Shown here: in pieces, positions 18,715-20,157 of the stretch
Layout of the letters: every line of letters starts with the position of its first letter
How positions within the stretch are numbered: position 1 is the first letter of the stretch
Assembly: GCA_003170135.1 (NCBI GenBank)
Contig: PMZR01000030.1
Span: forward strand, 1 to 32,394
DNA from: Acidobacteriota bacterium
GTDB lineage: Bacteria > Acidobacteriota > Vicinamibacteria > Vicinamibacterales > Fen-181
Reading direction: 5' to 3'
DNA: 32,394 bases
Made by a program: the position numbers and the translations under genes
Notes under the pieces: model-generated
Seen by the model: only the letters and a program-made list of their open reading frames with translations
Databases searched by the model: none
What the model was told of the DNA's origin: nothing

Positions 18715-20157
18715 ATGTCAATCAAGGTCCAACAAATCGACGCGTTCCGCTGGCGCATTCCGCGGGAAGGCCGGATGCAGGTCGAGGGCATCGTCTACGC
18801 GGACGAGCACCTGATGGCCGATATCCGCGGCGACCAGGCCCTGCAGCAGGTCGTCAACGTGGCGCACCTGCCCGGCATCCTGCGCGCGTCGCTGGCGATG
18901 CCCGACATTCACTGGGGGTACGGCTTTCCGATCGGCGGTGTCGCGGCCATGGATGCCGACCTCGGCGTGGTGTCGCCGGGCGGCGTCGGGTACGACATCA
19001 ATTGAGGAGTGCGGCTCCTCGGCTCAGGTCTGAGCCGAACGGACATCTCCGGCCGCGTGCCCGACATCGTCGCGCAGATGTTCAGCCACGTGCCGACCGG
19101 CGTCGGCGCGCATCGCGGCGACCTGCGCCTCGGGACGGCCGAGTTGCGGGCCGTCCTGCAGCAGGGGGCGGCGTGGGCCGTCAACCGCGGGTTCGGCCGG
19201 ACGAGGGATCTTGCCCACATCGAAGAGGGCGGTTCCCTGGACGGCGCAGATGCGGGCCTCGTGTCCGATCGCGCGCTCGAACGCGGTGCCGCCCAGCTCG
19301 GCACGCTCGGCTCGGGCAATCATTTCGCGGAAATCCAGTACGTCTCGGACATCTACGACGAGCCGGTGGCGCAGGCCTTCGGGCTGTTTCGCGACCAGGT
19401 CACCGTGATGATTCACAGCGGATCGCGCGGCCTCGGCCACCAGGTGTGCGACGACCACCTGCGGACCATGATGAGGGCCACGGCCAATCACCGCATCGAC
19501 GTGCCGGATCGTCAGCTATGCTGCGCCCCGATTCGATCGCCCGAAGGGGAGGCCTACCTCGGCGCGATGGCCGCCGCGGCGAACTTCGCGTTCGCGAATC
19601 GCCAGGTGATGAGCCACTGGGTTCGCGAGAGTTTCGCGGCGGCGCTCGGCCTGCCGGTCGATCGCACGGGCCTGGATGTGGTTTACGACGTCTGCCATAA
19701 CATCGCCAAATTCGAAACGCTGCCCGTCGAGGGGGCCTTGCGTCGGGTCTGCGTGCACCGCAAGGGCGCGACGCGGGCCTACCCGCCCGGCCACCCCGCG
19801 ACACCCGAGGCGTACCGGCAGGTGGGGCAGCCGGTGCTTATTCCGGGGGACATGGGCCGGTACTCCTACGTGCTGGTGGGCACCGAGCGCGCCTTCGCGG
19901 AGAGCTTCGGGTCCACCTGCCACGGCGCGGGCCGGCGAATGAGCCGGTCGGAGGCGAAGCGGTCGGTCCGCGGCCGGGCGCTCGTCGACGAGTTGCGATC
20001 GCGCGGCGTGCACGTCATGGCGGCTGGCATGGCGACGATCGCCGAGGAGATGCCGGAGGCCTACAAGGACGTCGCGGACGTCGTGAACGTGGTTCACGGG
20101 GCGGGCTTGAGCACGAAGGTCGCCAGGCTGCGGCCGATGGGCGTGATCAAAGGGTGA
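18715..20157 (+). CDS. rtcB: RtcB tRNA-splicing/RNA-repair ligase, candidate selenoprotein (in-frame TGA at catalytic Cys)
   Basis: RtcB joins RNA 2',3'-cyclic phosphate or 3'-phosphate to 5'-OH ends using GTP and Mn2+. Read through TGA 19003-19005, the frame gives 480 residues, the normal RtcB length. The TGA is codon 97, in GVGYDIN-U-GVRLL, exactly where the family has its metal-binding Cys (Cys98 of Pyrococcus RtcB). The rest of the active site is intact: D94, H203 (GSGNHFAE), H234 (IHSGSRGLG), H328 (CHNIAK) and the guanylylated H403 (CHGAGR). The C-terminus has the usual VVHGAGLSTKVARLRPMGVIKG-type end. A SECIS-like hairpin follows the TGA. The gene itself ends in TGA, so UGA is not generally reassigned. 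Annotation software would split it at 18715-19005 and 19009-20157. The alternative is a nonsense mutation (TGC to TGA) or sequencing error. Confidence 0.88.
19003..19005 (+). other. In-frame UGA, predicted selenocysteine codon (Sec97 of RtcB)
   Basis: Codon 97 of rtcB is TGA, between AAT (Asn96) and GGA (Gly98). Homology on both sides is continuous and in one frame, with no indel. The replaced residue is the invariant Cys that bridges the catalytic metals, which is the typical place for Sec in selenoproteins. Confidence 0.85.
19006..19050 (+). promoter_or_regulatory. Bacterial SECIS-like stem-loop
   Basis: Directly after the UGA the mRNA can fold into one long hairpin. The apical stem CGGCUCA/UGAGCCG (19020-19026 with 19031-19037) closes the tetraloop GGUC (19027-19030). 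It extends by U19019-A19038, then UCC/GGA (19016-19018 with 19041-19043), and a base stem GGAGUG with CA-U-CUCC (19006-19011 with 19044-19050, U19046 bulged). The loop context AGGUCU is the same as in the E. coli fdhF SECIS bound by SelB, and the UGA-to-loop distance of 21 nt is in the usual bacterial range. Confidence 0.8.

What the first reader, a model, noticed from the sequence alone, without database searches (positions are those of the whole stretch)
18715..20157. RtcB RNA ligase with selenocysteine predicted in place of the catalytic metal-binding cysteine
The rtcB frame is interrupted only by TGA at 19003-19005, exactly at the invariant Cys of GYDIN-C-GVRLL. Homology is continuous and in frame on both sides, the length through the TGA is a normal 480 residues, and D94, H203, H234, H328 and H403 are all present. 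A SECIS-like hairpin follows at the right distance. A Cys-to-Sec change at the Mn2+-bridging residue of a tRNA-splicing/RNA-repair ligase would alter metal affinity and redox sensitivity of the guanylylation centre. I am not aware of a characterised selenoprotein RtcB; that is a statement of my knowledge, not of a search. Standard pipelines would report two truncated genes.
Basis: partly seen in the sequence, partly recalled or inferred. Interest (0 to 1): 0.95.

Follow-up and report, generated by a model that had tools for sequence, protein, structure and literature searches.

The report
Selenocysteine form of RNA ligase RtcB
In this bacterium the gene for RtcB, an enzyme that joins broken RNA, has a UGA codon exactly where the codon for its metal-holding cysteine belongs, followed by an RNA hairpin of the kind that recodes UGA, so the enzyme is predicted to carry selenocysteine there; the same UGA sits in RtcB genes of more than a hundred other bacterial genome records, and the swap would likely matter because that cysteine is the part of RtcB most easily damaged by oxidation.

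Summary
The rtcB frame runs through one TGA (19003-19005) that aligns with the metal-bridging Cys98 of Pyrococcus RtcB. A hairpin with loop GGUC (19019-19038) meets all four criteria of the published bacterial SECIS model. The genome has selA, selB, selD, tRNA-Sec(UCA) and no second RtcB. The same TGA occurs in 117 stretches of a one-genome-per-species collection (list cut at its limit), mainly Nitrospirota, deltaproteobacterial groups and Acidobacteria. Selection on the protein is as strong after the TGA as before. The hairpin exceeds what protein coding explains in UGA genes, much less in cysteine relatives. Sec/Cys changed at least 18 times on a tree (11 forced by well-supported branches). 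selB passes its cut-off in 80 of 88 UGA-rtcB genomes. A 2026 catalogue of 119 prokaryotic selenoprotein families lacks RtcB, and my searches found no natural Sec-RtcB. Not shown: the protein, and what selenium does. I infer a selenolate bridging the two catalytic metals, favoured because this cysteine is RtcB's known oxidation weak point. Against: an engineered Sec98 in Pyrococcus RtcB cleaved its backbone, and eight genomes lacked a selB over cut-off.

The parts
18094..18702 (+). archease gene (archease domain in residues 56-202, about 18259-18702; true start unclear), just upstream of rtcB
   Evidence: Pfam Archease PF01951, 130.5 bits, cut-off 25. An archease-like frame lies within -4000..+5000 of the codon in 101 of 127 UGA and 36 of 48 Cys sequences, so it is not special to UGA genes.
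18715..20157 (+). rtcB, predicted full-length selenoprotein of 480 residues; terminator TGA 20155-20157
   Evidence: Pfam RtcB 576.6 bits through the internal TGA; aligns end to end with solved RtcB chains.
19003..19005 (+). in-frame TGA at codon 97, predicted selenocysteine in place of the metal-bridging cysteine
   Evidence: Aligns with Cys98 of P. horikoshii RtcB; same codon TGA in 117 collection stretches and TGC/TGT in 48 of 48 relatives without TGA that were examined.
19019..19038 (+). SECIS-like hairpin, 8 bp, apical loop GGUC at 19027-19030
   Evidence: Meets the four published criteria; region energy beyond synonymous recodings p = 0.012 for 27 nt, 0.072 for 42 nt.
19009..20157 (+). 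382-residue frame after the TGA, as ORF callers and the protein database hold it
   Evidence: ORF list; database protein P0002, 382 aa beginning VRLLGSGLSR, cluster on 7 contigs.

Best explanation
This is an RtcB RNA ligase gene with an in-frame UGA in place of the codon for its metal-bridging cysteine, and the UGA is predicted to be read as selenocysteine by the genome's own SelA/SelB/SelD/tRNA-Sec machinery, likely directed by the hairpin that lies 13 nt further on. Shown by sequence: the UGA at the cysteine codon, the hairpin, the sel genes, selection on the protein after the UGA, and the same arrangement in many other bacteria. Inferred: that the full-length protein is made, and that the selenolate of Sec97 bridges the two catalytic metals as Cys98 does in known RtcB, while RtcB guanylylates itself (at His403 by homology) and joins 3'-phosphate to 5'-OH RNA ends, helped by the neighbouring archease. 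Most likely benefit, inferred: a selenium ligand keeps or regains its metals after oxidation more readily than the cysteine, whose oxidation in other RtcB enzymes goes with loss of metal and activity.
For: Continuous homology through the TGA. Complete machinery in the same genome: selA 531 bits, selB 332, selD 348 with its own TGA at the usual SelD Sec site, tRNA-Sec with anticodon TCA. At least 117 collection stretches with the same TGA, 88 of them traced to separate genomes; selB over cut-off in 80 of these 88. UGA copy is the only RtcB at E <= 1e-50 in 47 of 50 genomes. dN/dS 0.082 before and 0.075 after the TGA, medians of 26 pairs. Form-I hairpin in 80 of 85 UGA sequences outside the Nitrospirota-type group, against a synonymous null of 6.1 (maximum 14 in 500) and 1 of 24 Cys relatives; Nitrospirota-type hairpin 87.4% paired against a null of 60.1, maximum 64.8. 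Sec/Cys interchange, 18 changes, 11 forced. TGA also ends rtcB here, and 38 of 105 UGA frames with a visible end. For the benefit: passages on oxidation of this cysteine.
Against: No protein, selenium or readthrough data. Engineered Sec98 in P. [quoted passage not shown] 8 of 88 UGA-rtcB genomes have no selB over cut-off, and G027, a UGA relative in the window's order, has none either. selB is common in that order anyway: 2 of 3 UGA carriers and 10 of 13 strong TGA-less carriers. 14 of 127 UGA sequences fit none of my hairpin classes; the published SECIS model is met by only 17 of 42 Nitrospirota-type UGA genes. Nitrospirota Cys genes also show raised pairing, 68.6% against a null of 57.0, maximum 64.7, and 9 of 48 Cys genes pass my loose test for that form. 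Many carriers look anaerobic by name, which weakens an oxygen-protection argument.
Confidence: 0.88

Rival explanations
1. Pseudogene, or sequencing or assembly error: the TGA is a nonsense mutation or a miscalled TGC/TGT in a decaying or misread copy.
For: A draft genome of 141 contigs, contamination 5.56; reads were not available.
Against: Same codon TGA in 117 other stretches; no TAA/TAG among the strong matches; dN/dS 0.075 after the TGA; hairpin conserved beyond coding; only RtcB of the genome.
Confidence: 0.03
2. UGA is a sense codon for another residue (reassigned code, or near-cognate readthrough by tRNA-Trp).
For: The frame is open if TGA is read as any residue.
Against: The same gene and the archease gene before it end in TGA, as do 38 of 105 UGA rtcB frames with a visible end; tRNA-Sec and sel genes are present; the aligned residue in relatives is cysteine.
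Confidence: 0.02
3. Termination at UGA is real and the gene makes two pieces, with restart at GTG 19009, as the ORF list suggests.
For: ORF callers and the protein database hold the 382-residue frame.
Against: Neither piece would have residue 97; all 48 examined relatives without TGA keep Cys there; the hairpin would have no role.
Confidence: 0.02
4. Sec is inserted, but only as a neutral or slightly costly stand-in for Cys: RtcB drifts between Sec and Cys wherever the sel system is kept for other proteins, with no gain in oxidation tolerance.
For: 18 or more Sec/Cys changes; a TGC gene (L208) nested among UGA genes with the hairpin left behind; selD in this genome is itself a predicted selenoprotein; Cys is kept in many relatives that have selB.
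Against: Wide distribution, strong upkeep of the hairpin, and the known oxidation weakness of the cysteine.
Confidence: 0.3

Closest known systems
Cysteine-type RtcB RNA ligase (P. horikoshii PH1602, PDB 1uc2; T. thermophilus TTHA1785, 2epg; human RTCB)
   Same: Whole fold by sequence, length, D94 and the four histidines, archease as neighbour
   Different: UGA instead of a cysteine codon at the bridging residue, with a hairpin after it
Engineered P. horikoshii RtcB with UAG98 for Sec (PMC4150793, passages)
   Same: Sec at the equivalent residue
   Different: Artificial, SECIS-free, and the Sec protein cleaved its own backbone; here the codon is natural UGA with a hairpin
Selenoproteins with Sec as a metal ligand: formate dehydrogenase FdhA (Mo/W) and [NiFeSe] hydrogenase (PMC13188914, section 7)
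   Same: Sec predicted to bind a catalytic metal where relatives use Cys
   Different: Those are redox enzymes; RtcB makes RNA phosphodiester bonds at a two-metal site and its chemistry is not redox
Bacterial SECIS elements such as E. coli fdhF (recalled) and the model in PMC13188914
   Same: Stem-loop in the coding region just after UGA, G at the start of the apical loop, spacing 21 nt
   Different: Nitrospirota-type rtcB genes have a longer, stacked stem that often misses the model (17 of 42 meet it)
PYROXD1 and thioredoxin, which protect or repair animal RTCB (PMC12263435, PMC10653391, passages)
   Same: Answer to oxidation of the same cysteine
   Different: Separate proteins; here the ligand itself would be changed

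Membership tests
RtcB RNA ligase (PF01139) | Match over the whole profile above the curated cut-off | tested here: met
   576.6 bits, cut-off 27, positions 1-426 of 426, read through the TGA
RtcB RNA ligase (PF01139) | Active-site Asp and His residues present | tested here: met
   D94, H203, H234, H328, H403 align with P. horikoshii; kept in UGA relatives apart from one T and one R at 403 among those that reach the columns
RtcB RNA ligase (PF01139) | Metal-bridging cysteine | tested here: not met
   Codon is TGA; predicted to be the selenium analogue, so filed as a variant, not a plain member
RtcB RNA ligase (PF01139) | Ligation of 3'-phosphate to 5'-OH RNA ends | not testable with these tools
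   Needs the protein
Bacterial selenoprotein | In-frame TGA aligned with Cys of homologues, recurring in other species | tested here: met
Bacterial selenoprotein | selA, selB, selC (tRNA-Sec) and selD in the genome | tested here: met
   a second RF01852 hit (47.3 bits) is a tRNA-Ser by ARAGORN
Bacterial selenoprotein | Selenium in the protein | not testable with these tools
   Needs 75Se labelling or mass spectrometry
Bacterial SECIS model (PMC13188914) | Apical loop 3-9 nt and upper stem 4-16 bp; G in the first two loop positions; 16-37 nt spacing; energy <= -7.5 kcal/mol | tested here: met
   Window: loop GGUC, 8 bp, 21 nt, -12.5. Met by 67 of 85 UGA genes outside the Nitrospirota-type group, 17 of 42 in it, 4 of 24 and 1 of 24 Cys genes
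Bacterial SECIS model (PMC13188914) | Binding by SelB and need for Sec insertion | not testable with these tools
   Needs a readthrough assay

The most novel reading that the evidence does not exclude
A widespread, unreported selenoprotein family: RtcB as the first known natural selenoenzyme that joins RNA, in which selenocysteine is the bridging ligand of a two-metal nucleotidyl-transfer centre and hardens, by chemistry inside the enzyme, the same oxidation-prone site that animals shield with a separate protein, PYROXD1. Selenium supply would then set RNA-repair or tRNA-healing capacity in these bacteria.
Probability: 0.5. Interest if true: 0.92.

Novelty: new variant of a known kind. Interest (0 to 1): 0.86.

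Why it matters
The 2026 review PMC13188914 expects most selenoproteins to serve redox functions; an RNA ligase whose two-metal centre is held by selenium would add a different chemical role for selenocysteine. The RtcB cysteine is called the enzyme's Achilles heel (PMC13247085, passage), so natural Sec/Cys pairs would allow a direct test of what selenium buys at a metal site. Practically, the window's gene is held in the protein database as a 382-residue fragment, so such RtcB enzymes are easily miscounted, and rtcB should be added to selenoprotein catalogues and annotation models.

Tried and rejected
Pseudogene, changed code and split gene were tested and rejected (see rivals). Rfam at gathering scores found nothing in the window, so the hairpin was tested by synonymous recoding and by published criteria. 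A first energy test over 48 nt was weak (43 of 120 UGA sequences at p <= 0.05, 0 of 6 Cys). With regions nearer the hairpin: 42 nt, 58 of 127 UGA and 8 of 48 Cys; 27 nt, 65 of 127 and 2 of 48; both with a factor of 2, 94 of 127 and 4 of 48. Pairing percentages of forms Ia and Ib are circular, as the forms were assigned by pairing; one search is the version without that choice. Two of its 80 (L091, L122) are Nitrospirota genes that pass by a four-pair match. selB does not discriminate within the window's order. The motif has no match in the viral collection. No structure prediction was run.

Rows dropped: L018-L031 (weak, distant or partial matches) entered no count of UGA or Cys genes. In some searches only the first 30 matches each came with loci, so 23 of 53 and 18 of 48 strong matches entered no alignment. 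193 sequences became 175 (127 UGA, 48 Cys) after near-identical ones were removed. The tree also used 15 database proteins, every eighth of 119. selB was not tested in 29 of the 117 loci: 27 not asked, 2 not held.

Full report
OBSERVATION. The frame at 18715-20157 is interrupted once, by TGA at 19003-19005, and ends in another TGA. Read through, it gives 480 residues that match the whole RtcB profile (576.6 bits) and align end to end with solved RtcB chains. Residue 97 falls on Cys98 of P. horikoshii RtcB, and the other active-site residues are in place (their roles are recalled). The gene just upstream is archease, named as RtcB's activation factor in the abstract start of PMC10944509 (listing only).

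MACHINERY. The genome holding the window (5.8 Mb, 141 contigs, completeness 100, contamination 5.56) has one RtcB, selA at 531.1 bits with cut-off 267.9, selB at 332.3 with cut-off 242.25, selD at 347.9 with cut-off 125, and a tRNA that scores 60.5 bits as tRNA-Sec and that ARAGORN calls tRNA-SeC with anticodon TCA. A second hit over the Rfam cut-off (47.3) is a tRNA-Ser by ARAGORN. selD itself has an in-frame TGA in SCSG-U-ASKL, which fits the UxxK motif listed for SelD in PMC13188914. So at least one more predicted selenoprotein is present.

DISTRIBUTION. By record title 52 bear deltaproteobacterial, Desulfo-, Syntroph- or proteobacterial names, 40 Nitrospirota-like names, 19 Acidobacteria-like names, and 6 others, including Planctomycetota, Binatia and Methylomirabilota. 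Two of them have the rtcB region found in the window's order relatives G027 and G008 (L003 and L004 replaced L133 and L153 when near-identical sequences were removed); both carry Acidobacteria titles, so the window's organism is probably an acidobacterium. In the samples around three UGA carriers, 3 of 16, 9 of 53 and 19 of 48 strong matches have one internal TGA and none has TAA/TAG; the centres were chosen as carriers, so these are not prevalence estimates. Of 88 UGA-rtcB genomes tested, 80 have selB over cut-off (34 of 38; 46 of 50); 2 of 14 control genomes do. In 47 of 50 such genomes the UGA copy is the only RtcB at E <= 1e-50. The viral collection has no match.

CODING BEYOND THE TGA. 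In 26 UGA-UGA pairs with finite dS (of 35 close pairs, no sequence used twice), median dN/dS is 0.082 before and 0.075 after the TGA. In the 86 of 117 collection loci whose frame is not cut by an end, the median stop-to-stop length is 491 residues and two are under 470. D94 is kept in 127 of 127 UGA sequences. H203, H234, H328 and H403 are kept wherever the sequence reaches, except one T and one R at 403.

HAIRPIN. The window's element is TCGGCTCA-GGTC-TGAGCCGA, 19019-19038, and satisfies the four criteria given in PMC13188914 (section 5 read; test). After the TGA of the same genome's selD stands GCTCAGGTCCTGAGC, nearly the same apex (sequence), though the predicted lowest-energy fold there uses another pairing. 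UGA relatives fall into form Ia (60), Ib (20), a Nitrospirota form (33) and none of these (14 of 127). In Ib the stem letters exchange in compensation: pair 21-31 is A-T 11 and T-A 9, pair 20-32 is G-C 9, C-G 9, A-T 1, T-G 1. The Nitrospirota-type group (42 sequences, 38 by title) is 87.4% paired over 13 pairs against a synonymous null of 60.1, maximum 64.8 in 200. Without choosing by pairing, 80 of the 85 other UGA sequences have form I against 6.1 expected, maximum 14 in 500; Cys relatives 1 of 24 against 0.7, maximum 4. Two of the 80 are Nitrospirota genes passing by a four-pair match. The single Cys case, L208, is a TGC gene lying at distance 0.11 from UGA genes, which looks like a recent Sec-to-Cys change with the hairpin left behind. 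Against: Nitrospirota Cys genes also pair more than their null (68.6% against 57.0, maximum 64.7); 9 of 48 Cys genes pass the loose test for that form; the published model is met by 67 of 85, 17 of 42 (Nitrospirota-type), and by 4 of 24 and 1 of 24 Cys genes.

EVOLUTION. On a FastTree of 190 rows (127 UGA, 63 Cys) the trait needs at least 18 changes, 11 of them forced by starred branches; shuffled labels need 53.2 on average. Gain and loss cannot be told apart, and the sampling favours UGA genes.

FUNCTION. That the protein is an RtcB ligase follows from homology. That Sec replaces the bridging ligand is inferred from the alignment. [quoted passage not shown] passages of PMC12263435 describe shielding by PYROXD1 and of PMC10653391 repair by thioredoxin. 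None of these three texts contains a word beginning with selen. From general selenium chemistry (recalled: lower pKa, easier re-reduction of oxidised forms) the likely gain is a site that stays or becomes metal-bound again after oxidation. [quoted passage not shown] A counter-example exists: artificial Sec98 in P. [quoted passage not shown] Whether natural enzymes avoid this is untested.

NOVELTY. Table 1 of the May 2026 review PMC13188914 (119 families or subfamilies; table read in full) has no RtcB. The deep-Sep paper PMC12013277 was searched for RtcB and ligase, without a hit. NCBIfam release 20.0 gives this protein four RtcB or intein-RtcB models, all under their cut-offs, none named as a selenoprotein. 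Searches for RtcB with selenoprotein (3 papers), with selenocysteine (6), with in-frame UGA (0), splicing ligase with selenocysteine (5), UPF0027 with selenocysteine (0), Acidobacteria with selenoprotein and selenocysteine (13), two of RNA ligase, SECIS, selenoproteome (257, 20 listed), and tRNA ligase with selenoprotein (55, 12 listed) showed no natural Sec-RtcB in the listings. PMC1586002 and PMC9723677 were checked by passages and are unrelated. The library holds open-licence papers only, and PMC12013261, a selenoprotein paper cited by the review, is not held, so an earlier report elsewhere cannot be excluded.

VERDICT. A widespread Sec form of a known enzyme and, on sequence evidence, a new selenoprotein family; the protein, the chemistry and the benefit are still to be shown.

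Noticed in passing
L167 (own genome, G000:C33:35890-36819, minus strand): selD of the same genome has an in-frame TGA in SCSG-U-ASKL, so SelD is itself a predicted selenoprotein.
   Followed up: partly
L208 (G167:C245:2316-3749): A TGC (Cys) rtcB nested among UGA genes still carries the form-I hairpin, a likely SECIS fossil after a Sec-to-Cys change.
   Followed up: partly
L174-L203, Nitrospirota loci: Nitrospirota-type rtcB hairpins differ from the usual bacterial SECIS (three stacked stems), and some Cys relatives keep part of the pairing.
   Followed up: partly
window 14546-15949: Phage-type integrase gene (PF00589, 89.4 bits) beside a zinc carboxypeptidase gene at 16051-18066.
   Followed up: no
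L165 (own genome, C54): selB lies next to a ribonuclease R gene, and its frame extends well before the SelB match (match begins at residue 145 of 807).
   Followed up: no
window 3082-4557, 11958-13532, 24165-26318, 26607-27725: Ordinary-looking genes: radical-SAM protein with UPF0004 and TRAM_2, trypsin-like protease with PDZ domains, carbohydrate phosphorylase, asparaginase family.
   Followed up: no
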